From positions 2,418,001 through 2,482,000 of the forward strand of contig NZ_JAUCEN010000002.1 in the NCBI RefSeq assembly GCF_030348945.1: 64,000 nucleotides of DNA, in the 5' to 3' direction. Positions 18,147-40,462 of the stretch are shown here, piece by piece. Origin of the DNA: Peribacillus sp. ACCC06369. Its GTDB lineage: Bacteria; Bacillota; Bacilli; Bacillales; DSM-1321. Position 1 is the first letter of the stretch. The number at the start of each line of letters is the position of its first letter. A program made the position numbers and the translations under genes. The notes under the pieces are model-generated. The model had not been told where the DNA came from. It was given only the letters and a program-made list of their open reading frames with translations, and did not search any database.

Positions 18147-18605
18147 ATGATGGAAGGTAAAGGGAGTTTGAATTTGCCAGCAGGAATTGAACAGTCTTGG
18201 GATGTGTTATTAGATTCAGAGGTGCTTAAGAGATGCATCATGGGGTGCAAAAAATTGGAATTAGTTGAAGAAAATAAATATGAAGCTGATATATCAATGG
18301 GTGTTGCATCAGTGAAAGGTGATTACTCTACAACAATTGAATTAGCGAATATTAATAAACCGATATCTTATCAAATGATCGTTAAAGGTGAGGGAGGACC
18401 TGGAAGCATAGAAGCCGTCGCAGATATTACTCTTGAATCAGTAGATGAAAACAACACTGTTCTCTCTTACAGCTTTGAAGCAGAAGTAGGAGGAAAAGTT
18501 GCGATGGTCGGTCAGCGAATGCTAGGAGGCGTATCTAAACTGGTTATTAAAGACTTCTTCAAAAAATTTGGGAAAGAATTAAAAAAGGCTGAAGTTACCA
18601 ATTAA
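18147..18605 (+). CDS. CoxG-like SRPBCC protein
   Basis: The 152-residue protein follows GGATAGGAGGAGTTT. It is an SRPBCC/CoxG-family protein: MMEGKGSLNLPAGIEQSWDVL is the usual opening, with PGSIEAVADITLESVDENN and VGQRMLGGVSKLVIKDFFKK later. CoxG proteins accompany aerobic molybdenum hydroxylases and are thought to help membrane attachment or assembly. Here it heads a three-gene operon with an acyl-CoA ligase (41-base gap) and a crotonase-like enzyme. A decayed second copy precedes ligase 2 at 32.07 kb. Confidence 0.88.
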   Translation: MMEGKGSLNLPAGIEQSWDVLLDSEVLKRCIMGCKKLELVEENKYEADISMGVASVKGDYSTTIELANINKPISYQMIVKGEGGPGSIEAVADITLESVDENNTVLSYSFEAEVGGKVAMVGQRMLGGVSKLVIKDFFKKFGKELKKAEVTN

Positions 18606-18646: not shown

Positions 18647-20215
18647 ATGAATTTAGGTACATTATTGGATTTTGCGGTGGAACGCTATCCAAATCAAATT
18701 GCTCTCGTTCAAGGCCTGAAATCTTATACTTATGCCCAATTACAAAAGGAAGTAGAAAAAGTTGCTGCCTCTCTGCAGCGTTTAGGCATTCAAAAACAGG
18801 ACCGTGTTGTTGTCATCTTAAAGAACAGACAGGAAAATGTTATGGTTTACTGGGCAATACAACAGATTGGTGCAATCTATACTCCAATAAACCACCGCTT
18901 ATCCGCCAAAGAGGTCGAGTATTGTGTAAACGATTCTGATGCGAAGGCCATCATCTTTGAATCAACCAGTCAAAGTGCTGTGTCAGGTGCGAACTTTCTC
19001 GAAAGACCAATCTTGATTGGTGTTGAAAATGATAATGGTGTGGATATTTCTTATCAGGAATTAGTAGACAGAAGCCCAGGAAGCTATCAAAGGCCAATTC
19101 TAGATGAGAATGATATATCGATAATGCTATACACATCCGGTACAACAGGACGTCCAAAGGGAGTACCACGAACACATAGGAATGAATATGCCTCGGCTAT
19201 GGCACATATCGTCCAAAACCAGTACCAGTTGTGGGAAAGTACATTAGGAGTAATGCCGCTTTATCATACAATGGGTGTTCGTTCGTTGCTCTCTATGACT
19301 TTTTTAAATGGAAAGTTTGCTCTTTTATCAAACTTAGACTTTGATGCTGGAGAGGCGCTTGAAATTGTAGAAAGAGAAAAAATTTCATCCCTTTATTTAG
19401 TTCCGACGCTTTATCATGATATGTTATCATACCCGGATTTTGGCAGGTATAACCTTACCAAGCTTGAAAAAATCGGGTATGCTGGTGCCGCAATGACCAC
19501 TACATTAGTAAATCAATGTGTGGAGTTACTTAAACCAAAACTGTTTGTAAATCATTACGGTAGTACGGAGGTATATACGTTTACGATCTGCCCTGATGTA
19601 CATGAAAAGCCAGGCAGTGCAGGTAAACCGGGGATTCATCAAAATATTCGCCTGGTAAAAGCAGATCCAGACGGTCATTCTACTCCTGATGATATTGTTG
19701 GGAGAGAAGAAGTCGGCGAAATTATTGCAAATCTGAAGTCCGTTGAAGCCTTTAAAGGGTATTGGAATCGCCCGGAGGCGACGGATAAAACTATTCGAGA
19801 TGGCTGGTATTTTACAGGAGATATTGGCTTTATTGATAAAGACGGTGACTTATTCGTTGTTGGCCGGGTTGACGATATGATTATCTCTGGGGGAGAAAAC
19901 ATTCATCCATTAGAAGTCGAGGATTGTCTGACTCAACATCCAAAAGTTAGGGAAGCTACCGTAATTGGGAAGCTTGATGAGCGCTGGGGACAGATTGTTA
20001 CCGCTTATATTGTTGCTAAAGACGAATCTGTTACAGAGCAAGAACTGGATGAATTTTGCAAGAATCTACCCAGTTTATCAAATTTCAAAAGGCCTCGTAA
20101 GTATACGTTTGTAAAAGAGATTCCAAAAAGTCCTGTAGGGAAAATTCTTCGCCGTAAATTGCGCGAGGGTGATATTGATGCACCGCACAATGAAAGTGAA
20201 GCTATCAGCCAATAA
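18647..20215 (+). CDS. Aromatic/furoic acid-CoA ligase 1 (AMP-forming)
   Basis: The 522-residue protein belongs to the ANL superfamily. The ATP loop YTSGTTGRPKGVPRTH is near residue 163, the A4-type PLYHTMG near 207, YGSTEVY in the middle, GWYFTGDIG, and the hinge region IISGGENIHP. The catalytic Lys is in PKSPVGKILRRKL near the end. It activates a carboxylic acid with ATP and CoA. In the hmf-type pathway this step is 2-furoate to 2-furoyl-CoA; benzoate-like acids are the alternative. It is 31 bases from the crotonase gene. A paralog lies at 32.4 kb. Confidence 0.88.
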   Translation: MNLGTLLDFAVERYPNQIALVQGLKSYTYAQLQKEVEKVAASLQRLGIQKQDRVVVILKNRQENVMVYWAIQQIGAIYTPINHRLSAKEVEYCVNDSDAKAIIFESTSQSAVSGANFLERPILIGVENDNGVDISYQELVDRSPGSYQRPILDENDISIMLYTSGTTGRPKGVPRTHRNEYASAMAHIVQNQYQLWESTLGVMPLYHTMGVRSLLSMTFLNGKFALLSNLDFDAGEALEIVEREKISSLYLVPTLYHDMLSYPDFGRYNLTKLEKIGYAGAAMTTTLVNQCVELLKPKLFVNHYGSTEVYTFTICPDVHEKPGSAGKPGIHQNIRLVKADPDGHSTPDDIVGREEVGEIIANLKSVEAFKGYWNRPEATDKTIRDGWYFTGDIGFIDKDGDLFVVGRVDDMIISGGENIHPLEVEDCLTQHPKVREATVIGKLDERWGQIVTAYIVAKDESVTEQELDEFCKNLPSLSNFKRPRKYTFVKEIPKSPVGKILRRKLREGDIDAPHNESEAISQ

Positions 20216-20223: not shown

Positions 20224-21019
20224 AAATAGAAAAGGGGAAATAACAAATGACTATAACAGAGCAAACGTATGACCATATTCGGGTAGAGAAAAATGCAGAA
20301 AAACAAACGGCAACAATCGTGTTCGATCGTCCAGAGAAAATGAATTATATCAGTATGCTCGGCAGAGAACAGCTGACAGAGATTTTTGATGGTTTGAATC
20401 AAGATGATGAAGTGCGTGTCATTATCCTCAAAGGAGCAGGAGATGTATGCTTCAGTGCAGGAGGAAGCATCCCAGAATTTATGGCGACCCATCAAGAAAA
20501 ACTTTCCCATTTAGCCGAAAACGTGGCTGCTCCTGAACGCTCTCCAAAACCTGTCATCGCTCAGCTGCAGGGATATACGTTCGGTGTAGGCCTAGAACTT
20601 GCGATGGCCTGTGATTTCAGGATTGCACGGGAAGATACCCTGCTTGCCCTTCCAGAAATGAACCTAGGAATGATTCCTGGGAGTGGAGGTACACAGAGAA
20701 TTGCAAAGATTGTGGGCTTAACAAGAGCAAAGGACATGATCATGCGTGCCAGAAAAATTCCTGCAAATGAAGCGTATCAATGGGGTCTATTAACACAAGT
20801 AGTGTCCAAAGGGGACCTTCAACAAACAGTGGATTCGTTAGTTGAGGAGCTTGTTCAATTTTCTCCGCTTGCTCAGCGTGTTGCAAAAGAAGTGTTGAAC
20901 GCTTCTGAAGAAAGTCCGCTGGGAGTCGGATTGAAAATGGAAGGGAAAGCCTACGGCCTCCTTCGCACAACAGAAGACTTTAAAGAAGGCGTAGATGCGT
21001 TCGTAGAAAAGAGAAAACC
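20224..21019 (+). repeat. 796-bp near-identical direct repeat, left copy
   Basis: From AAATAGAAAAGGGG, 23 bases before the crotonase start, to ten codons before its end, this sequence matches 40461-41256 with only about half a dozen base changes. Both copies have the same orientation and lie 20.2 kb apart. Confidence 0.9.
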
Positions 21020-21038
21020 AGTTTTTACAGGGAAGTAA
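20247..21038 (+). CDS. Enoyl-CoA hydratase/isomerase-family protein 1 (HmfE-like candidate)
   Basis: The 263-residue crotonase-fold protein follows AAAGGGGAAATAACAA. It has the CoA-binding region SAGGSIPEFMA, the oxyanion-hole segment and LALPEMNLGMIPGSGGTQR, where the hydratase catalytic Glu occurs. In the furoyl-CoA pathway an HmfE-type crotonase opens the lactone formed by the molybdenum hydroxylase, giving 2-oxoglutaryl-CoA. That role is inferred from context; simple hydratase activity is possible. It is the last gene of the coxG-ligase operon, and a strong terminator follows. It is almost identical to the copy at 40.5 kb. Confidence 0.85.
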   Translation: MTITEQTYDHIRVEKNAEKQTATIVFDRPEKMNYISMLGREQLTEIFDGLNQDDEVRVIILKGAGDVCFSAGGSIPEFMATHQEKLSHLAENVAAPERSPKPVIAQLQGYTFGVGLELAMACDFRIAREDTLLALPEMNLGMIPGSGGTQRIAKIVGLTRAKDMIMRARKIPANEAYQWGLLTQVVSKGDLQQTVDSLVEELVQFSPLAQRVAKEVLNASEESPLGVGLKMEGKAYGLLRTTEDFKEGVDAFVEKRKPVFTGK

Positions 21039-21083: not shown

Positions 21084-21155
21084 GATCAAGAAAAGCGCTT
21101 TAAATCATGTTTGATTCAGGGAAGTTAATAGAACGATATGGGAAGGATTGAAGGT

Positions 21156-22412
21156 ATGCAGCTAAAAAAGAGTTCTGAAAACAAGAAAGGTTTATTAAGT
21201 CATTTAAATGTAAGAACGGTTAGTGCAGGAACGCTGGCAGCAATTTTTGGCTGTAGTGGTCCGTCGCTAATTATAATAAACGGAGCATCAAATGGTGAAT
21301 TAACTCAAACACAAATGATTTCTTGGTTATTTGCGATTTATTTTTTTGGTGGGATATTAGGAATACTCATCTCCTTAAGAAATAAGCAGCCGATTGCTGG
21401 CGCTTATTCAATTCCAGGTGCTGTACTTGTTGTAGGTTCACTGTCAAACTATTCTTTAAATGAAGCTGCTGGTGCTTATTTGGCAGCAGGCCTCATTGTC
21501 TTTATGTTAGGGATAGCAGGGGTTATTGGTAAAGTTATGCACTGGATTCCGGTTCCAATTGTTATGTCGATGGTCGTTGGAACAATGATTAGTTTTGGGA
21601 CTGAGATGATTGCATCCCTCGAAAAAGCACCAATCATTGCAGGTTCATCCATCCTCGTGTATCTTCTCTCATTCCGTTATATAAAAAAATTTCCACCTAT
21701 TTTAATATCATTTGCTGTTGCTATCATTTTATCGGTTTGGATGGGAGAATTCCAAGTGAAAGATGTGAGTTCCGTTTTTGTCGTTCCTCAACTAGTGACT
21801 CCATCATTCAATATTGATGCGATTATTTCAATGGGCACCCCTCTTGCACTTTTAGTAATTGGTGCTGAAAACGCCCAGGCTACAGGTGTGTTAAACACCC
21901 AAGGATATAAACCACCGGTTAATGAGATGACGATTTTAAGCGGAATTGGCGGGGTTATTACGTCTTTTTTTGGAGGTCATAATGCGAATATTGCGGGGTC
22001 AATGACTGCAATCTGCGCATCAAAAGAAGCTGGTCAAATGGAAGGAAGATATGCAGCAGTAGTTGTATGTGGTGTGTTATTTTCTACCTTTGGATTGTTT
22101 GCAGGTACAGTCATGCCTTTTGTAGCTGCAATGCCGAAAGTATTAATCAGTACTGTTGCAGGACTGGCTATGATGGGAGTGCTTTTAAGTTCATTACAAG
22201 AAGCGTTTTCTAAACCCCAATTCCAAGTTGGTTCATTTTTTGCCCTTATCATTGCGATGTCAGGAGTCCATTTTTATGATATAAGCTCTTCATTCTGGGC
22301 GATATTGGGTGGTGTTGCTGTTTCTCTAATTATTGAAAAGCCTGATTTTAAAACCATCATTGTTCAACAAAGTAAAAATAGTACAGATTCTAACGTTTCT
22401 CAAGGAGTTTGA
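21156..22412 (+). CDS. BenE-family aromatic acid transporter 2
   Basis: A second BenE-type permease of about 418 residues with about 12 hydrophobic helices. Family segments are GCSGPSLIIINGASNGEL, AYSIPGAVLVVGSLS, LVIGAENAQATGVLNTQGYK and FFGGHNANIAGSMTAI. ATG 21156 is preferred because GGAAGGATTGAAGG lies before it; ATG 21138 in the same frame is possible. It is a diverged paralog of the permease at 16.1 kb and is transcribed alone between two terminators. Two different permeases suggest more than one imported acid. Confidence 0.88.
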   Translation: MQLKKSSENKKGLLSHLNVRTVSAGTLAAIFGCSGPSLIIINGASNGELTQTQMISWLFAIYFFGGILGILISLRNKQPIAGAYSIPGAVLVVGSLSNYSLNEAAGAYLAAGLIVFMLGIAGVIGKVMHWIPVPIVMSMVVGTMISFGTEMIASLEKAPIIAGSSILVYLLSFRYIKKFPPILISFAVAIILSVWMGEFQVKDVSSVFVVPQLVTPSFNIDAIISMGTPLALLVIGAENAQATGVLNTQGYKPPVNEMTILSGIGGVITSFFGGHNANIAGSMTAICASKEAGQMEGRYAAVVVCGVLFSTFGLFAGTVMPFVAAMPKVLISTVAGLAMMGVLLSSLQEAFSKPQFQVGSFFALIIAMSGVHFYDISSSFWAILGGVAVSLIIEKPDFKTIIVQQSKNSTDSNVSQGV

Positions 22413-22652: not shown

Positions 22653-22793
22653 GTAAGGTTCGAGCCTTACCCTAGTCTTCAAGAAAAGCGGAACTGCAGG
22701 CGTTCCAGTTGTAACGTCATTCGTTCCAGTTGGATGGTTAATGGGTAGGAAAGAGTGAATTTTAAACAGTTTATTAATGGCATGAAACTTGCA
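22653..22793 (+). promoter_or_regulatory. Sigma-54 promoter with upstream activator sites for the ubiX operon
   Basis: TGGCATGAAACTTGCA (22778-22793) matches the -24/-12 consensus TGGCAY-N5-TTGCW exactly. Upstream, CGTTCCAGTTG occurs at 22701-22711 and 22722-22732, 21 bases apart (two DNA turns), with an inverted GCGGAACTG at 22688-22696. A further near-palindrome (GTAAGG...CCTTAC) lies at 22653-22670. This is the architecture of a sigma-54 promoter with enhancer sites; the activators at 41.7 and 43.7 kb are the obvious candidates to bind. Confidence 0.82.
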
Positions 22794-23592: not shown

Positions 23593-24927
23593 ATGTCTAA
23601 TGTAGTCGCTCATTCTGAACAAGAAAATGTAACCGTTAACAGACGTCAGGTTGTCTCTGCAATGACAGCATCACTATTAGGGTGGTCTTTTGATCTTTAT
23701 GATCTTTTTCTTCTACTTTTTGTGGCTCCCACAATTAGTGTACTATTTTTCCCTACAACCAGCCCTACGCTTTCTTTAGCTGCTGTTTATGCTTCTTTTG
23801 GGGTAACGCTTTTGATGCGGCCTCTTGGGTCGGCAATATTTGGATCCTATGCAGATAAAAACGGGCGAAAGAAAGCAATGATTGTTTCTGTGGTAGGGGT
23901 TGGAGTTAGTACAGCTGCCTTTGGTCTTTTGCCTACTGTCCCACAAATTGGTGTGACGGCTGCAATCCTTTTTTTAATTCTACGATTAGTTCAAGGGGTC
24001 TTTGTCGGCGGTGTCGTGGCATCTACACATACAATTGGAACAGAATCTGCGTCGCCTAAATGGCGCGGATTGATGTCTGGTCTTATAGGTGGGGGAGGAG
24101 CCGGGTTAGGAGCATTATTCGCTTCACTAACGTTTACCATCGTTTCTGCTTTTTTTCCTGGTGAAGCGTTTAATGATTGGGGTTGGCGAGTCATGTTCTT
24201 TACAGGGATTTTAGGTGCAGTAGCTGGTCTACTTGTATTTAGAACACTTAACGAGTCTCCGCTTTGGGCACAATTACGTAAAGAAAATGAAGAAAAAGGG
24301 CAAGAGGATGTAATACCGCAGTCTCCTATTAAGACCCTATTTACAAAATATTTCCGAGTTATAGCTGTGAATCTAATGATTGTTATTGGTGGTGGTTCAG
24401 GTTATTACCTTACAGCTGGTTTTATTCCCACATTTCTAAAAGTAGTTAACAATGTATCTTCAGAAGTTTTATCAGGTGTTCTCATTGTCTCAAGTATTGT
24501 CACGATAATTTCGGCTTTACTGTTCGGACAACTTAGTGAAATTATTGGAAGAAAAAAGACCTTTTTAGTTATTGGATGTTTAAATATCGTCGGACTTCCA
24601 TATTTTTATCTAGCATTAGCCGATTCTGTTACAACGACTTCGATTTATTTGAATACGATGGGTCTGGTGTTTTTAGGAAATGCTGCTTATGCACCTGTGT
24701 TAATTTTTCTTAATGAACGCTTTCCTACATCAATACGGTCTACGGGTACAGGACTGTCATGGAATATGGGATTTGCAATTGGCGGTATGATGCCAACTTT
24801 CGTAACATTAGCAAGCGGTTCGATTGAAAATATACCGTACACACTTATGTATTTTGTGATTGTAATTTTTCTTGTCTACATTATTGGAAGCCTCATCGTT
24901 CCAGAAACAAAAGGCAATCTCAAATAG
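23593..24927 (+). CDS. MFS transporter, metabolite:H+ symporter type
   Basis: The 444-residue protein has 12 predicted membrane helices. The loop 2-3 motif is GSYADKNGRKKAM, and WSFDLYDLFLLLF in helix 1 resembles the aromatic acid and sialic acid/metabolite:H+ symporter families. It follows GGAGGTCCTCTA. It lies between ubiX and an aldehyde dehydrogenase gene, so it is likely an importer for the acid or aldehyde handled by this operon. The hmf cluster of proteobacteria also includes an MFS carrier. Confidence 0.88.
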   Translation: MSNVVAHSEQENVTVNRRQVVSAMTASLLGWSFDLYDLFLLLFVAPTISVLFFPTTSPTLSLAAVYASFGVTLLMRPLGSAIFGSYADKNGRKKAMIVSVVGVGVSTAAFGLLPTVPQIGVTAAILFLILRLVQGVFVGGVVASTHTIGTESASPKWRGLMSGLIGGGGAGLGALFASLTFTIVSAFFPGEAFNDWGWRVMFFTGILGAVAGLLVFRTLNESPLWAQLRKENEEKGQEDVIPQSPIKTLFTKYFRVIAVNLMIVIGGGSGYYLTAGFIPTFLKVVNNVSSEVLSGVLIVSSIVTIISALLFGQLSEIIGRKKTFLVIGCLNIVGLPYFYLALADSVTTTSIYLNTMGLVFLGNAAYAPVLIFLNERFPTSIRSTGTGLSWNMGFAIGGMMPTFVTLASGSIENIPYTLMYFVIVIFLVYIIGSLIVPETKGNLK

Positions 24928-24945: not shown

Positions 24946-26403
24946 GTGATTACAAAATTAGAGATTACTAGAAATTATATTAATGGCGATTGGCAAGAAG
25001 CCAAAACTGGGGAAACGATGACATCCGTAAATCCTGCTACAGGTGAGATCGTTGGAGAGTCACAGAAATCGGGATTAGAAGATATTAAATTGGCAATTAA
25101 ATTGGCGAAGGCAGCATTTCATACATCCGACTGGCGTTCAAATTCTTCGCGACGTTCTGATGCTTTAATGCAATGGGCTTATAAATTGAAGGAAAATAGA
25201 GAAGAAATTGCTAGAATTTTAACCACAGAGAACGGAAAGCCGATAAAGGAGTCTCGTATAGAATTGGACGCCTGTATTGATACGTTAAAATATTTTGCAG
25301 GTATGGCTCGGAGTATATTCGGTAGGTCGATAAATCTTTCCTCCACGTCATATGGCATCATTGACAAAGAGCCGATTGGAGTAGTAGGGATTATTTCACC
25401 TTGGAACTGGCCGGCTATGCTAATGATTCGAGAGGTTGCTCCAGCCCTTGCTGCAGGAAACGCAGTGGTTTTAAAACCGGCAAGTCGGACACCACTTATC
25501 AGCACTGCCATTGTCAAATTAATCGAGGAAAATAGCGATTTTCCACCAGGAATTGTGAATATCGTGTCTGGTCCGGGAAAGGTTATTGGAGATGAAATGA
25601 CTACAAATCCCGATGTTAATGCCATCAGCTTTACAGGTGACACGACTACTGGCAAAAACTTAATGAAAAAAGCAGCAGAAAAGGTGAAGAAACTTGCTCT
25701 TGAACTGGGGGGGAAATCTCCTAATATAATATTTCCTGATGCAAACCTTAACAAAGCAATTCAAGCCGTTGCAAAATCAGCCTTTATTACTGCCGGCCAA
25801 ATGTGTTTTGCTGGATCAAGAGTGATTGTTCATGAGTCGATTCATGAAGAAGTGGTGGAAGGATTGCGTAAACAGGCTGAAAAATTGAAAGTTGGTAACG
25901 GGTTAATTGAAACAACCGATATGGGACCTGTCATCTCGGAAGAACAGCTTAATAAAATTTTGGAATATTGCGAGATTGGAAGACAAGATGCAAAACTTAT
26001 TACGGGTGGTAATAGGTTGACCGGTGGAGATTACGATAAAGGGTATTATATTGAGCCAACCATTTTTGATCAGGTGCCAATTGAATCAAGAATAGCACAA
26101 GAAGAGATTTTTGGGCCCGTGCTGGCCATACAAGTTTTTAGGGACGAGAAAGAAGCGATCTCACTTGCTAATGGAACAATTTTCGGTTTAGCTGCTGGCG
26201 TTTGGACAAAGGATGTCAACAGAGCTGTGAGAATTGCGAAAAAGGTGGAGGCCGGAACGGTTTGGATTAATACCTATAACAAAAATTACCCACAGGCAGA
26301 ATTTGGGGGTTATAAAGAGAGCGGAATTGGGCGTACAAGGGGAATTGAAGGATTAATGGAATATACCGAAACAAAACATATTAATATTGAAATAGAAGAA
26401 TAG
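24946..26403 (+). CDS. NAD(P)-dependent aldehyde dehydrogenase
   Basis: The 485-residue protein starts at GTG 24946 (behind a G-run). ALDH features in order: NYINGDW, ISPWNWPAMLMIREVAPALAAG, LELGGKSPNII with the general-base Glu, and GQMCFAGSRV with the nucleophilic Cys. The C-terminus ends GYKESGIGRTRG. It oxidises an aldehyde to its acid. Next to a partner alcohol dehydrogenase and the UbiD pair, the likely job is oxidation of furfural, HMF or a related aromatic aldehyde. It is 18 bases after the MFS gene. Confidence 0.9.
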   Translation: MITKLEITRNYINGDWQEAKTGETMTSVNPATGEIVGESQKSGLEDIKLAIKLAKAAFHTSDWRSNSSRRSDALMQWAYKLKENREEIARILTTENGKPIKESRIELDACIDTLKYFAGMARSIFGRSINLSSTSYGIIDKEPIGVVGIISPWNWPAMLMIREVAPALAAGNAVVLKPASRTPLISTAIVKLIEENSDFPPGIVNIVSGPGKVIGDEMTTNPDVNAISFTGDTTTGKNLMKKAAEKVKKLALELGGKSPNIIFPDANLNKAIQAVAKSAFITAGQMCFAGSRVIVHESIHEEVVEGLRKQAEKLKVGNGLIETTDMGPVISEEQLNKILEYCEIGRQDAKLITGGNRLTGGDYDKGYYIEPTIFDQVPIESRIAQEEIFGPVLAIQVFRDEKEAISLANGTIFGLAAGVWTKDVNRAVRIAKKVEAGTVWINTYNKNYPQAEFGGYKESGIGRTRGIEGLMEYTETKHINIEIEE

Positions 26404-26420: not shown

Positions 26421-27572
26421 ATGTATCAATCATTTGAGTTTCATCTTCCCACAAAGATTTATTTTGGATATAACAAAATCAACGAACTTAACAATATACC
26501 TTTTAAAGTAAAACGTGCCTTTATCGTTACTGATAACGGTGTCTTAAAATCAGGGTTAATCGAAAATGTAACAAAAATCTTAGAGGACAATCACATTTCT
26601 TATGTGATTTATGATGATGTGGAACCGGATCCGAGCGTTGAAACCGTTGACAAAGCAGCTCACGGGTTTCAACAGGAAGAATGCGATGCTTTAATCGCCA
26701 TTGGCGGGGGCAGTCCGATCGATACAGCCAAAGGTGTTCGTGTAATAGCTGGAAATGGAGGGAGTATTCGTGATTATGCTGGAGTAAATCTTATCAAGCA
26801 ATCATCCAATATTCCTCTCATTGCAATACCTACGACATCCGGCACCGGAAGTGAAGTGACCATGTTTGCTGTTTTTTCGGATTGGGAGGAGAATCGAAAA
26901 GTTACGGTAACGAGCCCATTCATCGCACCGGATATAAGTATAGTGGACCCTAAAATGACGATGACTGCACCAACGAAAATTACAGCAGCCTCAGGATTTG
27001 ATGCCTTTGCACATGGGGCAGAGTCATTTGTGTCACGGATATCCCAGCCTGCCAGTGACGCACTTGCATTATCAGCCATGCGAACTGTTAGCAAATACCT
27101 TCGTCGGGCCGTATTTAATGGAAATGATGTAGAGGCAAGGATCAAAATGGCAGAAGCTAGTCTCTTGGCCGGTATGGCATTCAATCAATCATTCCTCGGA
27201 TTGACACATGCCATTGGAAGTGCGTTAAGCGGATATGCCCATGTTAGTCACGGAGTGGCAATAGGTCTGCTTTTACCGGAGGTTATCCGCCGTAATTCGA
27301 TATCCCTGGTCGATAAGCATGTTGAAATGGCGAGCGTTTTTCGAGTAACTGATCCATCGTTACCTGGTTGGAAGATTACAGACCAATTAATAGAAGATGT
27401 GACTAAATTACGAAACGATATCGGGCTTCCACAGAAATTGCAGCAGGTGGGGGTTAAAGAAGAGCACCTTAAGGGGATCGCACACGACTCCGTGAAAAGT
27501 GGAATGTGGAAATTTAATCCTTGGCTAGCAACAGAAGAAGAGATTTTGGATCTACTGAAAGAACTGTTTTAA
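26421..27572 (+). CDS. Iron-containing alcohol dehydrogenase
   Basis: This 383-residue group III alcohol dehydrogenase has the NAD-binding GGGSPIDTAKGV at about 95, the SGTGSEVT segment, and metal-ligand His residues in THAIGSALSGYAHVSHGVA. It interconverts a primary alcohol and an aldehyde in the cytosol. It lies 17 bases after the aldehyde dehydrogenase gene; together they could take a hydroxymethyl or alcohol substrate to the acid. Substrate unknown. Confidence 0.9.
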   Translation: MYQSFEFHLPTKIYFGYNKINELNNIPFKVKRAFIVTDNGVLKSGLIENVTKILEDNHISYVIYDDVEPDPSVETVDKAAHGFQQEECDALIAIGGGSPIDTAKGVRVIAGNGGSIRDYAGVNLIKQSSNIPLIAIPTTSGTGSEVTMFAVFSDWEENRKVTVTSPFIAPDISIVDPKMTMTAPTKITAASGFDAFAHGAESFVSRISQPASDALALSAMRTVSKYLRRAVFNGNDVEARIKMAEASLLAGMAFNQSFLGLTHAIGSALSGYAHVSHGVAIGLLLPEVIRRNSISLVDKHVEMASVFRVTDPSLPGWKITDQLIEDVTKLRNDIGLPQKLQQVGVKEEHLKGIAHDSVKSGMWKFNPWLATEEEILDLLKELF

Positions 27573-27629
27573 AGTTTGATTTTTTTATTAAAGACTATTA
27601 ATTCTATTATAAAATTGGAGGTAATTGTA

Positions 27630-28478
27630 ATGACAGAAAATATCGATAAAACTGAAGAGCTAATCCCTAGTATTGATAAGACGACGGATGAAGTGGCATG
27701 GGACTTATATCGAAAAGCGATTCGTTTTGGGACTTGGGATCCTGCTGCTATCGATCTTAGCCAGGATAAAAGGGATTTTGAAGCGCTTGATGAAGACCTT
27801 AAAGGATATCTTATTCATTTTTGTACAGGATTTCTCGATGCTGAAGAAAATGTTGCCTTAAAGTTTTGTCCCTGGATCATGTTAGGTACCTCTACAGAAC
27901 AACAGGCATTCCTTAGTACTCAATTGCTCGAGGAATTTAAACATACTGAGTTTTTTATGCGCTATTTTAAAGAAGTAATTGGTCGTGAGCGAATTCCTTC
28001 AGTGAAAAATATGGTTCAGCAGAAACTTGATAATCGTGTAAAAGTAATGCTGAATGCTCTTGAACAAGGAGAAGAGGAACGTGAGGCTGCACTTGTAGAA
28101 GGGTTAACCCATTACCAAGGAATAATAGAAGGTGTTCAAGCGATGACTGGATATGATGTGTTTCGAGGTGTATACGGAAGTAAGGGCCTATTGCCTGGTT
28201 TGAGTGAAGGATTTGCCCGAATCAAGGAAGACGAAGGACGGCATGTAGGCTTTGGACTTCGTATGCTAAAGCTGTTTGCCCGTAAACCAGAACATGCCAA
28301 GAGAATTCGTGCGTTATACGAAGAATACCTTCCTCTTATCTTGGTTCGATATGATCAACCTGTCATTGTAGACGGTAGGGAATACCCAACTCCACCTGAA
28401 GTTCGAGGCCGTGAAAGAGTGTCTAAAATGTTAGAACGCAGACTTAAAGACATATTAGGTTCATCAGTTACCGTTTAA
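27630..28478 (+). CDS. R2-like ligand-binding oxidase (R2lox)
   Basis: From ATG 27630 (after TTGGAGGTAATTGTA) the protein has 282 residues and the ferritin-like four-helix fold of ribonucleotide reductase R2, but no reductase alpha-subunit gene is near. The metal ligands are in place: E72 (DAEENVA), E102 and H105 (LEEFKHTEF), E167 (QGIIEGVQ), E202 and H205 (KEDEGRHVG). V75 and Y162 occupy the positions that form the Val-Tyr ether crosslink known in R2lox, which sets it apart from NrdB/NrdF. R2lox proteins build a Mn/Fe or Fe/Fe centre that activates O2 and bind a long-chain ligand; their physiological substrate is unknown. Here it lies inside an aromatic/furan operon, 57 bases after the alcohol dehydrogenase. 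Confidence 0.85.
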   Translation: MTENIDKTEELIPSIDKTTDEVAWDLYRKAIRFGTWDPAAIDLSQDKRDFEALDEDLKGYLIHFCTGFLDAEENVALKFCPWIMLGTSTEQQAFLSTQLLEEFKHTEFFMRYFKEVIGRERIPSVKNMVQQKLDNRVKVMLNALEQGEEEREAALVEGLTHYQGIIEGVQAMTGYDVFRGVYGSKGLLPGLSEGFARIKEDEGRHVGFGLRMLKLFARKPEHAKRIRALYEEYLPLILVRYDQPVIVDGREYPTPPEVRGRERVSKMLERRLKDILGSSVTV

Positions 28479-28494
28479 TGAGGATTCTTTTATT

Positions 28495-28592: not shown

Positions 28593-30005
28593 GTGCCTAA
28601 TGGAAATATAATAATTTTAGGAATTGTCGTCTTTTATATTTTGCTTACTGCTTTCTTTGGTTTATATACAAAAAAATTCTCAAAAAGTTCCGATAAGTAC
28701 ATGACAGGCGGAAAGGCGTTTGGGCCTTTTATTATTGGAGTTTTAATGATGTCAGAGTTTATTGGTACCGGATCAACGATCGGAACAGCCCAAACTGCTT
28801 ACAGCACAGGTATTTCGGCAGCATGGAATTTGATTACACTTGCATTGGCATTTGCGTTATTTGCTTACACTATGGCAAAAAAGTTTCATGAACGGGGAGA
28901 GTATACAATCTCGGGAGCCATTGCTAAAACGTATGGGAATGGTGCACGAGTTATAACCTCGCTAATTATGATCTATGCCCTGGCAGTAGTTAATGTTTCA
29001 ATGTACGCTGGCGGAGCGGCTACATTATCAGCAATTCTTAATGTCCCACATACAATGGCAGCAATAATTGTTGGGGTGATAACCGTAGTATATGTCTCAT
29101 TAGGTGGAATGTTTGCAGTTGCATATACCAATTTAATTCACGCCTTTATCAAGTACTTGGGTTTGATACTTGCGCTTGCATTTGGTTTGGCGGCAGCGGG
29201 GGGACTTTCCGGGTTATCCTTGAATCTAGAGTCTGAGATGTTTGACTGGACGGGAATCGGCTTGTCAACAATCATTGCTTGGACAATAGCTAATATCGGT
29301 TCCATTTTTTCAACTCAATATATTATCCAGGCGATATCTTCAACACAAGATGATGCTAAGGCCAAGAAAGCGAGCATCTATGCCGGTTTCCTTGTAATTC
29401 CCGTTGGTATCATTGCATCTTTGATTGGGATGACTGCCTCAATTGTTTTTCCGAACATCGCGCCAGCAGAAGCTTTCCCTATGATGACAACGTTAATGAA
29501 TCCGTTTCTGGCGGGACTAGTTGTAGCTGGATTAATTGCCGCTGTCTTTGGTACAGTTGCAGCTTCAACTATTGGGTCGGCTGCCCTTCTATTGAAAGAT
29601 TTCTACAATCCCATTTTTAATAAAGATGCTTCTGACACGAAATCGTTGCGGTTTGCCCGAATTGCAACAATTGTTATGGGACTGATTCCGATTCCATTTG
29701 CGATTTTTGCACCAGAAATATTAAGCACTGTCTTTTTTGCTAGAGCTTTAAGAACCACCTTAGCCGTTATTGTCGTTTTGATGTTCTATTTCCCGCGTTT
29801 TAGTAGTGGACGAGGAGCAGTATTGGGAATGGTCTTTGCCGTGATTACGACAACTGTCTGGTATCTTGGCGGTGATCCATTAGGGATAGATAATATCTAT
29901 GTCGCTGCAGTTACTCCATTAATTGTCATGTTGTTTGATCATTTCATCAATAAGAATAATAGAGTTTCGTATAACGAACCTAAGGTCAAGACGGAAATCA
30001 TATAG
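28593..30005 (+). CDS. Sodium:solute symporter (SSS family)
   Basis: The 470-residue protein has about 13 hydrophobic helices, starting at GTG 28593 after GGGGGAGTTACT. Family features include GGKAFGPFIIGVLMMSEFIG near helix 2 and the sodium-site region TYGNGARVITSLIMIYALAVV. It would import a carboxylate or similar solute with Na+. Within the ubiX-ubiD operon, it adds a fourth type of carrier to the supercluster. Confidence 0.88.
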   Translation: MPNGNIIILGIVVFYILLTAFFGLYTKKFSKSSDKYMTGGKAFGPFIIGVLMMSEFIGTGSTIGTAQTAYSTGISAAWNLITLALAFALFAYTMAKKFHERGEYTISGAIAKTYGNGARVITSLIMIYALAVVNVSMYAGGAATLSAILNVPHTMAAIIVGVITVVYVSLGGMFAVAYTNLIHAFIKYLGLILALAFGLAAAGGLSGLSLNLESEMFDWTGIGLSTIIAWTIANIGSIFSTQYIIQAISSTQDDAKAKKASIYAGFLVIPVGIIASLIGMTASIVFPNIAPAEAFPMMTTLMNPFLAGLVVAGLIAAVFGTVAASTIGSAALLLKDFYNPIFNKDASDTKSLRFARIATIVMGLIPIPFAIFAPEILSTVFFARALRTTLAVIVVLMFYFPRFSSGRGAVLGMVFAVITTTVWYLGGDPLGIDNIYVAAVTPLIVMLFDHFINKNNRVSYNEPKVKTEII

Positions 30006-30079: not shown

Positions 30080-31477
30080 ATGAGATCAAAGACGTTTCGG
30101 ACATGGCTTACACACCTGCAAACAACGGGTCGTTTAGCGACAATTGATAAAAATGTCAGTTTAGAATATGAGGTTGCTGCTATTGCGAAAAAATTAGATG
30201 GAAAAAAGGCTACCTATTTTACTAGCGTAGAAGATTATGAGATTCCTGTCGTATCAGGAATTTGTTCAACACGTGAGGATTTTGCAGAAGCTTTGGAAAC
30301 GGATCAATACAATGTTATAACAAAATTCACAGAGGCGGTATCCGCTCCAGAAGCATGTCTGCTAGTTAATGAAAATGAAGCCCCTGTTAAAGAAAATATT
30401 ATTCTAGAAAATATCGATTTGATGAAGATGTTTCCAATTCCGGTTCACCATGAGAAAGATTCGGGTAATTACATCACCGCTGGATTGTTTATTGTTAGGG
30501 ATCCAGTTACTCGGAAGCAGAACGTTTCAATTCATCGTCTCCAAATTTCTGGGAAAAATAAGATAGGAGCCTTAATTTTGCCTCGCCATACTTTTCATTT
30601 GTATAAGCAGGCTGAAGAGGCGGGGAGACCACTGGAATGTGCAATCGCCATTGGCGTCGATCCGGTGACCTTACTGGCGTCTCAAGCTAGCACTCCGTTC
30701 GGAGTAGATGAACTTGAAATTTCAAGTGCTCTCCGTGGAGAACCATTAGAAGTGGTTCGTTGTAAGACGGTTGATATTGATGTCCCGGCTTATGCGGAAA
30801 TTGTATTAGAAGGAAAAATTCTTCCACATGTTCGTGAGCCGGAAGGCCCTTTTGGAGAATTCCCAAAATACTATGGACCGCGCAGTGACAAGGAGGTCAT
30901 TGAGATTACTGCAGTAACTCACCGAAACAATCCGATTTTTTATACGATTGTTCCTGCGGGATACGAACATCTTTTGCTTGGTGGGATTCCACGTGAGGCA
31001 AGTCTATTCCAAAGCATTCGCCAGACCGTCCCGTCAGTAACAGCGGTGCATATGAGCCCTGGTGGCACATGTCGCTATCATGCGATTGTTTCAATAAAAA
31101 AACGGAATGAAGGCGAAGCGAAAAATGCAATTTTAGCTGCTCTTGCTAATAGTTTTGATATTAAACATGTCGTCGTAACGGATGAAGAGGTTGATATTTT
31201 TAATATGGAAGAAGTGGAATGGGCAATCGCAACCCGCTTTCAAGCAGACAGAGACTTAGTGGTAGTTCATGAAGCACAAAGTTCGAAGCTTGACCCGTCA
31301 ACACGCGATGGAGTGGGCTCGAAGATGGGATTTGACTGTACAATCCCCTTAGACAGTGAAGAAATGCAATACTTGCGAGTTCAAATTCCCGGCTACAATG
31401 AATGTAATCTAGATGATTATATAAATCCTGATAAATTGATTCAATCAGTTCATCTTGAAGGAGATATAGACTTCTAA
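30080..31477 (+). CDS. ubiD: UbiD-family prenylated-FMN decarboxylase
   Basis: The 465-residue protein follows CAGGAGGATTCAATTT. UbiD hallmarks include SGNYITAGLFIVRDP (prenylated-FMN and Mn/K site region), the acid-base segment REPEGPFGEFPKYYGP and HMSPGGTCRYHAIVSIKK. Length is typical. It non-oxidatively decarboxylates (or carboxylates) an aromatic or heteroaromatic acid, using cofactor made by the UbiX in the same operon. In HMF degradation the equivalent HmfF removes CO2 from 2,5-furandicarboxylate to give 2-furoate; hydroxybenzoate or pyrrole-carboxylate decarboxylation are alternatives. It ends the operon ahead of a terminator. Confidence 0.92.
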   Translation: MRSKTFRTWLTHLQTTGRLATIDKNVSLEYEVAAIAKKLDGKKATYFTSVEDYEIPVVSGICSTREDFAEALETDQYNVITKFTEAVSAPEACLLVNENEAPVKENIILENIDLMKMFPIPVHHEKDSGNYITAGLFIVRDPVTRKQNVSIHRLQISGKNKIGALILPRHTFHLYKQAEEAGRPLECAIAIGVDPVTLLASQASTPFGVDELEISSALRGEPLEVVRCKTVDIDVPAYAEIVLEGKILPHVREPEGPFGEFPKYYGPRSDKEVIEITAVTHRNNPIFYTIVPAGYEHLLLGGIPREASLFQSIRQTVPSVTAVHMSPGGTCRYHAIVSIKKRNEGEAKNAILAALANSFDIKHVVVTDEEVDIFNMEEVEWAIATRFQADRDLVVVHEAQSSKLDPSTRDGVGSKMGFDCTIPLDSEEMQYLRVQIPGYNECNLDDYINPDKLIQSVHLEGDIDF

Positions 31478-34156: not shown

Positions 34157-34924
34157 ATGGCAGAGCTGCTAATTGTTGATACAGACCTAAGCTGTATAAG
34201 CAATATTCGTCATATTGTTGAAAATAGCGACTATAACTTTCTTCGTATTTATGAAGCTAATAACGCACAACGGGCTATGATGATGCTTAAACAATCCCGT
34301 CCAAGTGCGCTTATAATGGATGTTTCACTTCCGAACATGGATGGCATAGATTTTGGGAAAAACGTACTACTTATCTATCCAGACTTACCCATCATTGCAA
34401 TTACAGGGTTAAAAATGTTTGAAATCGTCCAATCAGCCATTAATGCGGGTTTTTCAGCTTATTTATTGAAACCGCTTACTAAAAACCAGCTTTTGAACAT
34501 ATTCGATCGTGTTTTAAGACCAATAATTAAAATGGAAATAAGTCAGACGGTTAAAAATGAAGGTGAATTCGAATTAGATTTAAGAAAACCGATTCAAAGT
34601 GCCGTACAATACATTCAGTTACATTACAATGAATGTCTTACTCTTAAAAATATTGCTGATAAGGTTTATTTAAGCCCATCCTACTTTAGTAAATCTTTTA
34701 AGGAAGAAATAGGGATGACATTTGTAGAATACTTATCTTGGATTCGTGTTCAGAAGGCAAAAAATATGTTAAGAATGATTTCTCTACCAATTGATGTTAT
34801 TGCTAATAACACCGGTTTTGCAAATTCCAGTTACTTTGCAACAACATTCAAGAAAATAGAAGGAAAAACTCCAACTCAGTATCGAGAGCATTTTTTCTGG
34901 GAAAGAAAAAAAGATATCAATTGA
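34157..34924 (+). CDS. Response regulator with AraC-type DNA-binding domain
   Basis: The 255-residue protein has an N-terminal receiver (about 1-120) with the phospho-acceptor Asp in LIMDVSLPNMDG and Lys in YLLKPLTK, and a C-terminal AraC/XylS double helix-turn-helix (about 150-250: ADKVYLSPSYFSKSFKEE, ANNTGFANSSYFATTFKK). This is the YesN-type layout. No histidine kinase gene is next to it. It lies between ligase 2 and the molybdenum enzyme genes and may control one of them. RBS is AAAGAGGTG. Confidence 0.9.
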   Translation: MAELLIVDTDLSCISNIRHIVENSDYNFLRIYEANNAQRAMMMLKQSRPSALIMDVSLPNMDGIDFGKNVLLIYPDLPIIAITGLKMFEIVQSAINAGFSAYLLKPLTKNQLLNIFDRVLRPIIKMEISQTVKNEGEFELDLRKPIQSAVQYIQLHYNECLTLKNIADKVYLSPSYFSKSFKEEIGMTFVEYLSWIRVQKAKNMLRMISLPIDVIANNTGFANSSYFATTFKKIEGKTPTQYREHFFWERKKDIN

Positions 34925-34957
34925 AAAAAATATTTTTTCACTTTGGGAGGGGTGGTT

Positions 34958-36016
34958 ATGATTACCATAATAAATGAGATGGACAGGTGTGTCAGAGAAA
35001 AGAAAAGAGGAATTCTGGCCACTGTCATACGTGTCGAAGGTTCAACCTACCAGAAAGAAGGGGCAAAATGTTTTTTTGCTGAAGATGGAGAGTTAATAGG
35101 CTTATTAAGTGGAGGATGTGTGGAAGGTGATGTCCTTGAGCACGGAAAAGAAGTTTTACAGACAGAAAAACCCAAAAAAATCCATTACGATTTCAGAGGC
35201 GAAGAAGACCAAATTTGGGGCTTAGGTGTAGGGTGTAATGGAGCCATTGAGATTTTTATAGAGCTATTTGATCCTGTTGGTCAACATGAAAGAAGCAAGT
35301 TAATGAGAGAGGCTTTTACAACAAGTCAGCCCATTATCATAGCAACCATAACTCGTGATGAAGAAGAATCTAAGATCGGTGAGAGATGGGTTCACTCCAA
35401 TTTACAAATTGGGAAACCAATGGATCTCAAGATAAAAGATAACAGTGAAGTCTTCTATGACCATATTACGCCGGTTCCTACCCTTTACATATTTGGTGCA
35501 GGACCAGACGCTGTTCCATTGGTGAAGACGGTTAAAAATTTAGGCTGGACTGTAAATGTATTAGATCATCGACCGGGCTTTGTAAATAAAAGAAATTTTC
35601 CCTTAGCCGATGAATTAATATGCTATGAACGAGACCACCCCACTTCCGTTCCATTAAGTGAACATAGTTATGCTATTGTGATGAGCCACAATTTTACTCA
35701 AGACCAATTGGTTCTAAAATCGTTGTTACATTCATCGGTAGCCTATATCGGAGTGTTAGGACCAACAACTAGAACAAACCAGTTGCTCCAACCGATAATG
35801 AACGGTTTCACTATTGATGAAATACAGTTAAACCGTATTTATAGTCCTATAGGCCTTGATATTGGTGCAAAAACTCCTGAGGAAATTGCTATCAGTATTG
35901 CTGCAGAATTGGTTAATGTTCATCGTGGTGGTAATTCGATGCATTTAAAACAAACGAAGGGTAAGGAACTTTTGTATACCTCTAGAGATCATAGGGGAGT
36001 GATTGCTTATCAATGA
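34958..36016 (+). CDS. xdhC: XdhC-family molybdenum cofactor maturation protein
   Basis: ATG 34958 after GGGAGGGGTGGTT gives 352 residues. The N-terminal XdhC/CoxI domain has ATVIRVEGSTYQKEGAK and LSGGCVEGDVLEHG. The C-terminal Rossmann domain has YIFGAGPDAVPLVK and GVLGPTTRTNQLL. XdhC-type chaperones bind molybdenum cofactor, help its sulfuration and deliver it to xanthine-dehydrogenase-family enzymes. The next gene overlaps it by 14 bases, and the enzyme genes follow. Confidence 0.92.
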   Translation: MITIINEMDRCVREKKRGILATVIRVEGSTYQKEGAKCFFAEDGELIGLLSGGCVEGDVLEHGKEVLQTEKPKKIHYDFRGEEDQIWGLGVGCNGAIEIFIELFDPVGQHERSKLMREAFTTSQPIIIATITRDEEESKIGERWVHSNLQIGKPMDLKIKDNSEVFYDHITPVPTLYIFGAGPDAVPLVKTVKNLGWTVNVLDHRPGFVNKRNFPLADELICYERDHPTSVPLSEHSYAIVMSHNFTQDQLVLKSLLHSSVAYIGVLGPTTRTNQLLQPIMNGFTIDEIQLNRIYSPIGLDIGAKTPEEIAISIAAELVNVHRGGNSMHLKQTKGKELLYTSRDHRGVIAYQ

Positions 36017-36644
36017 TAAGAATCATGAAGTCTGGGGGATCATTTTAGCTTCGGGCTTATCAACCAGAATGGGTACTCCAAAAATGCTTTTGCCCTATCA
36101 ACAAAAGACACTAGTTCTTCATGTCATCGAAACGTGTTTACACTCAGTACTTGATGGGATGGTTGTTGTGATAAATCCAAAAGTGAATGGGTTGGTAGAG
36201 GCGGTATCTGTTCCTGGTATAAAACAAGTGGTAGAGAATCATGATTCACATTTAGGTATGTCTACTTCGATTAAAGTCGGACTGGAAGCTTTACCCCAAC
36301 AAGTAGAGGCCATGGTTATTCTTTTAGGCGATCAGCCTGAAATGGATGAAGGCTCAATAAACAGAATTGTTGAAACCTACCAAGTAAAGAATAGGCCATC
36401 CATCGTTCAGTCGGTTTTTTTAAACAACGAGAAGGGGCATCCTGTTTTATTCAAACGAGATATGTTTCATCATCTTTTACAGGTAGAAGGAGATAGTGGT
36501 GGAAAGTCCGTCATTCAAAAGTTTAGCAGGGAAGTTGTATATGCACCAATGAATCAGCACATTATTCCGGATGTTGACACAATAGACGATTATCAAAGAT
36601 TGATTAAAAAGAGGGGGGTTGTACATGACAAAGGTAATAGGTAA
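36003..36644 (+). CDS. MobA-like/CoxI-type nucleotidyltransferase
   Basis: The 213-residue protein has the NTP-transferase signature ILASGLSTRMGTPKMLLPY at the N-terminus, and LLGDQPEMDEG in the middle. It resembles MocA/molybdenum cofactor cytidylyltransferases, which make the MCD cofactor for CO-dehydrogenase-type hydroxylases. The start is TTG 36003, which overlaps the end of xdhC; its own end overlaps the next gene by 20 bases, which suggests tight translational coupling. Confidence 0.87.
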   Translation: MLINDKNHEVWGIILASGLSTRMGTPKMLLPYQQKTLVLHVIETCLHSVLDGMVVVINPKVNGLVEAVSVPGIKQVVENHDSHLGMSTSIKVGLEALPQQVEAMVILLGDQPEMDEGSINRIVETYQVKNRPSIVQSVFLNNEKGHPVLFKRDMFHHLLQVEGDSGGKSVIQKFSREVVYAPMNQHIIPDVDTIDDYQRLIKKRGVVHDKGNR

Positions 36645-39972: not shown

Positions 39973-39976
39973 AGAA

Positions 39977-40462
39977 ATGGGCCGTCATCAAGTGGAAGTA
40001 ACTATTAATGGCAAAGTCTATCAAGAAGAAGTGGAATCACGAATGCTGTTAAGTGATTTTATCCGAGATGTATGCGGACTGACTGGAACACATGTTGGAT
40101 GTGAACACGGTGTTTGTGGTGCTTGTACCGTACACGTAAATGGCACAGCTGTGAGAAGTTGTCTCATGTTTGCTGTACAAATAGATGGGGACGAAATTAA
40201 AACCGTTGAAGGGTTAGCAAATAATGGTGAGTTGACAGATCTACAGAAAAACTTTGTCGAATGCCACGGTCTTCAATGTGGATTTTGTACACCAGGTATC
40301 TTAATGTCTACAACAGATTATCTTGAAAAAAAGCCAGATCCCTCTACCAAGGAAATCAAAGAAATGCTTTCTGGCCATTTATGCCGCTGCACGGGGTATG
40401 ACGGTATCATTAATGCCATCGAGAAAACCATTGTAAATAAAAAAACAGCGATCTCATCTTAA
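39977..40462 (+). CDS. Molybdenum hydroxylase [2Fe-2S] (small) subunit
   Basis: ATG 39977 after AAGGAGGTAGAGAA gives 161 residues. The plant-type cluster ligands are CEHGVCGACTV and RSC. The second cluster near the molybdenum site uses CGFCTPG and HLCRCTGYDGI. This CoxS-type subunit carries electrons from the Mo centre to FAD. Earlier in-frame starts inside the medium-subunit gene are less likely because the ribosome binding site lies after them. Confidence 0.94.
   Translation: MGRHQVEVTINGKVYQEEVESRMLLSDFIRDVCGLTGTHVGCEHGVCGACTVHVNGTAVRSCLMFAVQIDGDEIKTVEGLANNGELTDLQKNFVECHGLQCGFCTPGILMSTTDYLEKKPDPSTKEIKEMLSGHLCRCTGYDGIINAIEKTIVNKKTAISS

What the first reader, a model, noticed from the sequence alone, without database searches (positions are those of the whole stretch)
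27630..28478. R2lox embedded in an aromatic/furan operon: a possible handle on its unknown substrate
All six metal ligands (E72, E102, H105, E167, E202, H205) and both crosslink residues (V75, Y162) of R2-like ligand-binding oxidases are present, and there is no ribonucleotide reductase partner. R2lox has been studied structurally, but its natural substrate is not established to my knowledge. The operon holds an alcohol and an aldehyde dehydrogenase but no HmfH-type flavin oxidase, so R2lox might supply an oxidation step before the UbiD decarboxylation, or a detoxifying oxidation.
Basis: partly seen in the sequence, partly recalled or inferred. Interest (0 to 1): 0.85.

Follow-up and report, generated by a model that had tools for sequence, protein, structure and literature searches.

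The report
R2lox dedicated to furan (HMF) breakdown
A metal-containing oxidase whose natural substrate is not agreed turns out to travel, in bacteria of two phyla, with the genes that break down the sugar-derived furan HMF, so that its likely substrate can now be tested directly.

Summary
[quoted passage not shown] the genome's NrdF/NrdE pair lies 1.37 Mb away. The operon carries HMF/2-furoate gene types: HmfF-type UbiD, UbiX, HmfABCDE-type genes, but no HmfH. The link is not local. In 299 genomes of the order this R2lox subclade ("R2loxII", my label) occurs in 8, all with HmfF-type UbiD, and in none of the 290 without it, including 4 with HmfA type only. Of 30 R2loxII loci, 26 have HmfF-type UbiD in the fetched stretch and 3 more elsewhere in the genome. 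One actinobacterial operon has hmfABCDE-type genes, ALDH, R2lox, UbiD and UbiX with no alcohol dehydrogenase or HmfH found. Best reading: an O2-dependent oxidase of the furan C5 side chain, most likely -CH2OH, in the place of flavin oxidase HmfH. The association is strong; the reaction is inferred. Methyl hydroxylation is a serious rival, because an Fe-ADH usually accompanies the gene.

The parts
27630..28478 (+). R2loxII gene (282 aa), R2-like ligand-binding oxidase
27617..27621 (+). Shine-Dalgarno GGAGG of R2lox
   Evidence: read in the sequence
22778..22793 (+). sigma-54 type -24/-12 site upstream of ubiX (candidate operon promoter)
   Evidence: not above chance in the window alone; same kind of site upstream of UbiX in L004-L007 and directly upstream of R2lox in L026, L027, L032, L034
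22924..23511 (+). UbiX-family flavin prenyltransferase (HmfG role)
23593..24927 (+). MFS transporter (metabolite/H+ symporter type)
24946..26403 (+). aldehyde dehydrogenase
26421..27572 (+). iron-containing alcohol dehydrogenase
28593..30005 (+). sodium:solute symporter family transporter
30080..31477 (+). UbiD-family decarboxylase, HmfF type (2,5-furandicarboxylate decarboxylase)
   Evidence: best solved matches 6h6v/6h6x, 558/549 bits, next 218 bits; these two entries are HmfF (PMC10176493)
32440..33999 (+). AMP-binding acyl-CoA ligase (HmfD role by family)
34157..34924 (+). response regulator receiver + AraC-type HTH regulator
34943..36016 (+). XdhC (Mo cofactor maturation)
36003..36644 (+). 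MobA-like NTP transferase
36619..39045 (+). molybdopterin subunit of xanthine-dehydrogenase family (HmfA role by family)
39097..39972 (+). FAD-binding subunit of the Mo hydroxylase
39953..40462 (+). [2Fe-2S] subunit of the Mo hydroxylase
40484..41275 (+). enoyl-CoA hydratase family protein (HmfE role by family), second copy
41676..43460 (+). sigma-54 activator (CBS, PAS, AAA, HTH)
43664..45046 (+). sigma-54 activator (PAS, AAA, HTH)
18147..18605 (+). CoxG family protein
18647..20215 (+). AMP-binding acyl-CoA ligase, first copy
20247..21038 (+). enoyl-CoA hydratase family protein, first copy
21138..22412 (+). BenE family transporter

Best explanation
The gene encodes a member of a distinct R2lox subclade (R2loxII) that is a dedicated enzyme of aerobic 5-hydroxymethylfurfural (HMF) breakdown. 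After auto-assembly of a dinuclear Mn/Fe (or Fe/Fe) site and the V75-Y162 ether cross-link (inferred from residues), it uses O2 to oxidise the C5 side chain of the furan, most likely -CH2OH of HMF acid to the aldehyde (via the gem-diol). The neighbouring aldehyde dehydrogenase then makes FDCA. UbiX/UbiD (HmfG/HmfF) decarboxylate FDCA to 2-furoate, and CoA ligase, Mo-hydroxylase and crotonase-family enzymes take it to 2-oxoglutarate. It thus fills the place of flavin oxidase HmfH. Shown here: family membership, subclade, operon content, co-occurrence with HmfF-type UbiD, absence of HmfH in this genome. Inferred: metal content, cross-link, reaction, exact substrate, and the activity of every neighbour.
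For: R2lox identity. UbiD is HmfF type. Order survey of 299 genomes: R2loxII in 8; HmfF-type UbiD (58% or more) in 9 = the same 8 + G007; HmfA type (64% or more) in 12 = the 8 + 4 that lack both (Fisher p 6e-15 for R2loxII with HmfF, ancestry not corrected, the 8 come from 4 genera). The ninth, G007, has UbiD/UbiX beside a TPP enzyme and a TRAP transporter, with no ADH, ALDH or hmfA found in the 15.9-kb stretch. 30 loci: UbiD in 26, ALDH in 28, Fe-ADH in 28 within the stretch; HmfF-type UbiD (64-67%) elsewhere in the genome for L010, L026 and L032. Actinobacterial L058: one-strand hmfABCDE-type genes, ALDH, R2lox, UbiD, UbiX, CoxG; no ADH or GMC found. GMC absent from 6 of 8 R2loxII genomes and on other contigs in 2. 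8 pseudomonadotal loci: GMC in 5, R2lox in 0. Sigma-54 site before R2lox itself in L026, L027, L032 and L034. HmfH does this step in the known pathway (PMC6604932 passages).
Against: Fe-ADH accompanies R2lox in 28 of 30 loci and could do the alcohol step alone. No dedicated reductase or coupling protein was seen in the operon. 3 of 8 pseudomonadotal loci have neither GMC nor R2lox in the fetched stretch, so the alcohol step can be encoded elsewhere. L058 ends at a contig edge, so an ADH may lie beyond; it is the only locus of its kind seen. HmfF-type UbiD (57-58%) occurs without R2loxII in 5 genomes of the phylum outside the class, and at 66% in a second locus of G125 without R2loxII in the stretch. 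Published R2loxI work points to alkanes and fatty acids, not furans. No activity, metal or phenotype data.
Confidence: 0.48

Rival explanations
1. R2loxII is a C-H hydroxylase of a methyl group on the furan (5-methylfurfural, 5-methyl-2-furoate or a similar C5-alkyl furan), making the hydroxymethyl compound that Fe-ADH and ALDH then oxidise to FDCA.
For: The trio R2lox + ADH + ALDH is reported around GkR2loxI, claimed to hydroxylate alkanes (PMC10867098); an Fe-ADH also adjoins R2loxI in this genome; Fe-ADH accompanies R2loxII in 28 of 30 loci, so the product of R2loxII may be an alcohol.
Against: R2loxII is in 8 of 8 genomes of the order sample that have HmfF type together with HmfA type, so it looks like a core step, not an option for a rarer substrate; L058 has no ADH in sight to take the alcohol further; no reductase partner seen; no paper found on bacterial 5-methylfuran hydroxylation (1 paper, a chemistry review by its title and abstract start).
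Confidence: 0.2
2. R2loxII belongs to the furan pathway but does another job: oxidative detoxification of furan aldehydes, oxidation of a different C5-substituted or aromatic acid, or a reaction after FDCA.
For: Co-occurrence with HmfF does not name the substrate; the UbiD substrate range is inferred, not measured; BenE, SSF and MFS transporters leave the imported substrate open.
Against: The 4 genomes with HmfA type but no HmfF type lack R2loxII, which speaks against a step after furoate; HmfF is the best solved match of the UbiD by a wide margin.
Confidence: 0.2
3. R2loxII acts on alkanes or fatty acids like R2loxI, and its place in the furan cluster is incidental.
For: Solved R2lox structures co-purify with long-chain fatty acids (PMC6399176 passages); R2loxI alkane report (PMC10867098).
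Against: R2loxII is a separate clade (99/99) with clade-specific residues near the metal ligands in the sequence (Q98, Q163, G164, Q170 in 28 of 28, N74 in 27 of 28); association with HmfF survives several gene orders and loss of synteny.
Confidence: 0.08
4. It is a class I ribonucleotide reductase small subunit (NrdB/NrdF).
For: Pfam PF00268 match; R2lox is homologous to R2.
Against: A171 instead of the Phe of R2 proteins, V75/Y162 pair, separate NrdE/NrdF pair 1.37 Mb away, fold rows.
Confidence: 0.01

Closest known systems
GkR2loxII (GKP26) on plasmid pHTA426 of Geobacillus kaustophilus HTA426
   Same: 59% identical; embedded in the same set of gene types: UbiX, ALDH, Fe-ADH, UbiD (78-79%), MFS, CoA ligases, XdhC, MobA, Mo hydroxylase, crotonase
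   Different: gene order differs; on a plasmid; in PMC10867098 named only as a possible aromatic hydroxylase, without the furan link
GkR2loxI (GK2771; PDB 4HR0)
   Same: fold, six ligands, V/Y cross-link pair, A171, Y175
   Different: 28-29% identical in the structural alignments; R2loxI relatives form a separate clade (GkR2loxI itself was not a row); sits with alkane/fatty-acid genes and is reported as alkane hydroxylase (PMC10867098)
HmfH, FAD-dependent HMF oxidase (GMC family) of pseudomonadotal hmf clusters
   Same: proposed place in the pathway; not found together with R2loxII in the loci examined
   Different: unrelated fold and cofactor (flavin against dinuclear metal)
HMF/2-furoate pathway hmfABCDE + hmfFG
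   Same: all gene types present in the window
   Different: no hmfH; Fe-ADH, ALDH and R2lox instead; sigma-54 type regulation suggested
SaR2loxII of Sulfolobus acidocaldarius (PDB 7qbk)
   Different: only 73.6 bits in sequence, far below members of this subclade; not a row in my tree

Membership tests
[quoted passage not shown]
   E72, E102, H105, E167, E202, H205 identical in 28 II and 12 I rows
[quoted passage not shown]
   V75 and Y162 identical in the same rows; the cross-link itself cannot be seen in sequence
[quoted passage not shown]
   A171 in the II and I rows, Phe in the genome's own NrdF; Y175 invariant in the 27 rows of A1; rules from PMC6399176 and PMC4118035 passages
[quoted passage not shown]
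   NF006200, 232.9 bits, cut-off 194
[quoted passage not shown]
   needs protein
R2loxI (clade of the reported alkane hydroxylase) | falls inside the R2loxI clade | tested here: not met
   the 28 II rows and the 12 I rows are each one side of a branch (99/99 in the group table; the I fork is drawn at 94/92); tree of 43 rows with very long outgroup branches, which the program warns about
class I RNR small subunit | Phe at the 171 position and an adjacent large-subunit gene | tested here: not met
   A171; no PF02867 match in the window
HMF/FDCA/2-furoate (hmf) pathway | HmfF-type UbiD with UbiX | tested here: met
HMF/FDCA/2-furoate (hmf) pathway | HmfABCDE-type Mo hydroxylase, CoA ligase and crotonase-family gene | tested here: met
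   by family and gene company, not by activity
HMF/FDCA/2-furoate (hmf) pathway | HmfH, GMC-family HMF oxidase | tested here: not met
   no PF00732 match in the whole genome
HMF oxidase by function | O2-dependent oxidation of HMF or HMF acid | not testable with these tools
   needs an assay

The most novel reading that the evidence does not exclude
R2loxII is a dinuclear-metal (Mn/Fe) furan side-chain oxidase, the non-flavin counterpart of HmfH, that with one aldehyde dehydrogenase turns HMF into FDCA; it would be the first R2lox whose natural substrate is fixed by its pathway.
Probability: 0.4. Interest if true: 0.85.

Novelty: new variant of a known kind. Interest (0 to 1): 0.75.

Why it matters
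R2lox has been a structural and bioinorganic model since at least 2009 (entry 3ee4) without an agreed substrate. A whole subclade tied to one known pathway narrows the candidates to a handful of furans. If confirmed, it adds a dinuclear-metal enzyme to the biocatalysts for making FDCA, a bioplastic monomer, and a thermophile (G. kaustophilus) offers a version to express.

Tried and rejected
RNR small subunit: rejected. Chance co-localisation in one genome: rejected. R2lox as part of furoate degradation proper: unlikely, since the 4 genomes with HmfA type but no HmfF type lack it; 'furoate-only' is my reading of them, and the HmfA loci of 3 of the 4 were fetched (L037, L038, L042). A step common to every HmfF: not so, since G007 and 5 genomes of the phylum sample outside the class have 57-58% UbiD without R2loxII.

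Weak spots. The genome-contig scan returns only what shares one of two conserved peptide patterns. Identity cut-offs (UbiD 55, ALDH 45, Fe-ADH 40, MFS 55 and others) were set by me. In L026 the nearest ALDH is 35% and not counted; L031 has UbiD 39% and ALDH 40%, not counted. The HmfF-type UbiD found elsewhere in the genome of L032 has a stop flagged inside the match row. GMC in the loci was sought with one query protein by BLAST, in whole genomes with PF00732 (13 genomes). The 8 pseudomonadotal loci were 8 of the 26 listed plasmid records with UbiD of 49-55%, taken among those with annotation; 7 of the 8 carry the Mo subunit in the stretch, L046 does not. The Actinomycetota sample gave R2loxII in 2 of 296 genomes, one of them the centre itself.

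The sigma-54 pattern was widened to TGGCAYRNNNNTTGCW after the first scan; the first scan of the window found 3 matches where 1.97 were expected, so in the window alone the site is no more than chance. The weight comes from 14 sites in L003-L032 against 0.65 expected from 20 order-1 Markov simulations (largest 3) and from their places; relatives share sites by descent. Of the 14, four lie before UbiX (L004-L007, the one in L005 about 430 bases away), three before R2lox (L026, L027, L032), and seven elsewhere (L013, L015, L018, L028 and three in L032). The L034 site before R2lox is outside that count. Sigma-70/terminator scan: no more than the shuffles. No - strand ORF of 90 aa or more overlaps the R2lox gene. 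The active-site comparison is by sequence only: which II-specific residues line the pocket was not tested, since no coordinates were available. Paper searches on HMF with monooxygenase/UbiD terms (15 papers), HmfH/hmfFG/Bacillus (8 papers) and HMF with ribonucleotide reductase (6 papers) showed no R2lox-HMF link in the listings.

Full report

The surroundings. The gene is fifth in a run of seven + strand genes: UbiX, MFS, ALDH, Fe-ADH, R2lox, SSF, UbiD (22924-31477). The UbiD matches entries 6h6v and 6h6x at 558 and 549 bits and the next solved protein at 218; these two entries are HmfF of Pelotomaculum thermopropionicum (PMC10176493, passages). Downstream follow a CoA ligase, a regulator, XdhC, MobA, the three subunits of a Mo hydroxylase and a crotonase-family gene, and upstream a second ligase and crotonase copy, CoxG and BenE. 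This is the gene content of the HMF/furoate pathway as reviewed in PMC6604932 (passages), except that HmfH, the flavin oxidase, is missing: PF00732 has no match in the whole genome.

Is the link general? Three searches over a sample of 299 genomes of the order gave a clean result. R2loxII (61% identity or more; the next matches are 36% or less) is in 8 genomes. UbiD of 58% or more is in 9: the same 8 and G007. The HmfA-type subunit at 64% or more is in 12: the same 8 and four (G002, G106, G134, G228) without HmfF-type UbiD and without R2loxII. Fisher's exact p for R2loxII with HmfF is 6e-15, and 0.002 among the 12 HmfA genomes; both ignore shared ancestry, and the 8 genomes are from 4 genera. 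G007's UbiD lies with UbiX, a TPP enzyme and a TRAP transporter; no ADH, ALDH, hmfA or R2lox was found in its 15.9-kb stretch, and its genome has no HmfA-type or R2loxII match, so it is another pathway or a fragment.

A scan of genome contigs gave 29 R2loxII loci; with pHTA426 of Geobacillus kaustophilus that makes 30. Within the fetched stretches 26 of 30 have UbiD of 55% or more, 28 ALDH, 28 Fe-ADH, 25 MFS, 17 the Mo subunit, and none matched the one GMC query. Of the four without UbiD in the stretch, L010, L026 and L032 have an HmfF-type UbiD (64-67%) elsewhere in the genome; L031, an actinobacterial MAG, has an adjacent UbiD of 39%. Gene order varies: UbiX-MFS-ALDH-FeADH-R2lox-UbiD (with SSF between in the window and L020-L022), ALDH-FeADH-UbiD-MFS-R2lox-ligase (pHTA426), UbiX-ALDH-FeADH-UbiD-R2lox (L025), UbiX-UbiD-R2lox-MFS-ALDH-FeADH (L030), and R2lox on the opposite strand from ADH and ALDH (L032) or from UbiD, ADH and ALDH (L034). 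Identities do not run in parallel (R2lox 79-81% with Fe-ADH 52-53% in L015-L019 apart from L017; R2lox 62% with UbiD 94% in L024), so the linkage has survived reshuffling.

An informative case. In a second actinobacterial genome (G686, L058; R2loxII in 2 of 296 genomes of that phylum sample, the other being the centre) one strand reads Mo subunit, ligase, crotonase, FAD subunit, FeS subunit, ALDH, R2lox (56%), UbiD (71%), UbiX, CoxG. No Fe-ADH or GMC match was found by BLAST, and no alcohol dehydrogenase among the 10 ORFs given to Pfam. In that operon R2lox is the only candidate in sight for the -CH2OH step. The contig ends in the Mo subunit, so genes beyond it are unseen.

HmfH against R2lox. 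Of eight pseudomonadotal plasmid loci with UbiD of 50-53% (8 of 26 such records listed), five have a GMC oxidoreductase in the cluster, three have none in the stretch, and none has R2lox. Of eight R2loxII genomes of the order, six have no GMC match at all and two have it on other contigs. So the two were not seen side by side. In a phylum sample, the other 298 genomes (a few of them of the order) have no R2loxII, though five outside the class have UbiD of 57-58%; HmfF alone does not call for R2lox. Whether those five are anaerobes, as Pelotomaculum is (recalled), was not tested.

Regulation. A sigma-54 type -24/-12 site lies 130 bases before ubiX in the window, and such sites lie before UbiX in L004-L007. 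In L026, L027, L032 and L034 such a site lies just before R2lox itself. Sigma-54 activator genes lie in the cluster (41676-45046) and near R2lox in several loci. In the window alone the site is not above chance; over L003-L032 there are 14 where 0.65 are expected, seven of them before UbiX or R2lox (L034 was outside that count).

How it probably works. Shown: family, subclade, gene company, absence of HmfH. Established for relatives: dinuclear Mn/Fe site, O2 activation, two-electron oxidation that makes the cross-link (PMC6399176, PMC4118035, passages). Inferred: ALDH takes HMF to HMF acid, R2loxII oxidises -CH2OH with O2, ALDH makes FDCA, HmfF/G decarboxylates, and the furoate genes finish. 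The main difficulty is Fe-ADH, which is nearly always present and could do the alcohol step. Either it works in the reducing direction or on other intermediates, or R2loxII acts one step earlier as a methyl hydroxylase. R2loxII also carries residues near the metal ligands in the sequence that R2loxI lacks (Q98 for Phe, Q163 for Asn, G164 for Met, Q170 for Leu in 28 of 28; N74 for Ala in 27 of 28), which would fit a smaller, more polar ligand than a fatty acid; this is a guess from sequence.

What was known. PMC10867098 (sections 3, 19, part 1 of 2 of section 14, and passages) reports GkR2loxI as an alkane hydroxylase from substrate loss in crude lysates; a double ligand mutant lowered the activity only slightly. 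It names GkR2loxII and its ADH, ALDH and CoA-ligase neighbours and asks about aromatic hydrocarbons; the word furan does not occur. 'R2loxII' for this subclade is my label after GkR2loxII and is not meant to include SaR2loxII (7qbk). In the open-licence library no paper holds R2lox with UbiD or R2lox with furan; of 211 papers with GKP26, GkR2loxII or pHTA426, 15 were listed and only that one is on the subject by its title. Subscription journals and supplements were not searched.

Verdict. The reaction remains to be shown.

Noticed in passing
window 22778-22793; L004-L007 before UbiX; L026:9916, L027:9855, L032:9919, L034:7898: Sigma-54 type -24/-12 sites before the UbiX operon and, in some loci, directly before R2lox.
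   Followed up: partly
window genome C2:2837052-2837720 (L002, L039:8878-9780): A second R2lox of the R2loxI type next to an Fe-ADH, then a YqcI/YcgG protein and a flavodoxin-fold protein.
   Followed up: partly
L058 2179-13138: Actinobacterial single-strand operon with hmfABCDE-type genes, ALDH, R2lox, UbiD, UbiX and CoxG, with no alcohol dehydrogenase found.
   Followed up: yes
window 50630-57638: Second cluster of redox genes: ALDH, two Fe-ADH, MFS, ALDH on one strand.
   Followed up: no
window 16080-22412 and 32440-41275: Ligase and crotonase genes occur twice around the furan operon and BenE twice upstream of it, as if two furoate modules had been joined.
   Followed up: no
window 9422-10549 (-) and 13178-14260 (+): Two IS110-family transposase genes upstream of the cluster.
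   Followed up: no
window 3095-6853: GerA-type spore germination operon (GerA, GerAC, spore permease).
   Followed up: no
L041 (G125 C1:2063081-2064427): A second HmfF-type UbiD (66%) in a genome that has R2loxII elsewhere, beside an Fe-ADH-like gene (41%) and without R2loxII in the stretch.
   Followed up: no
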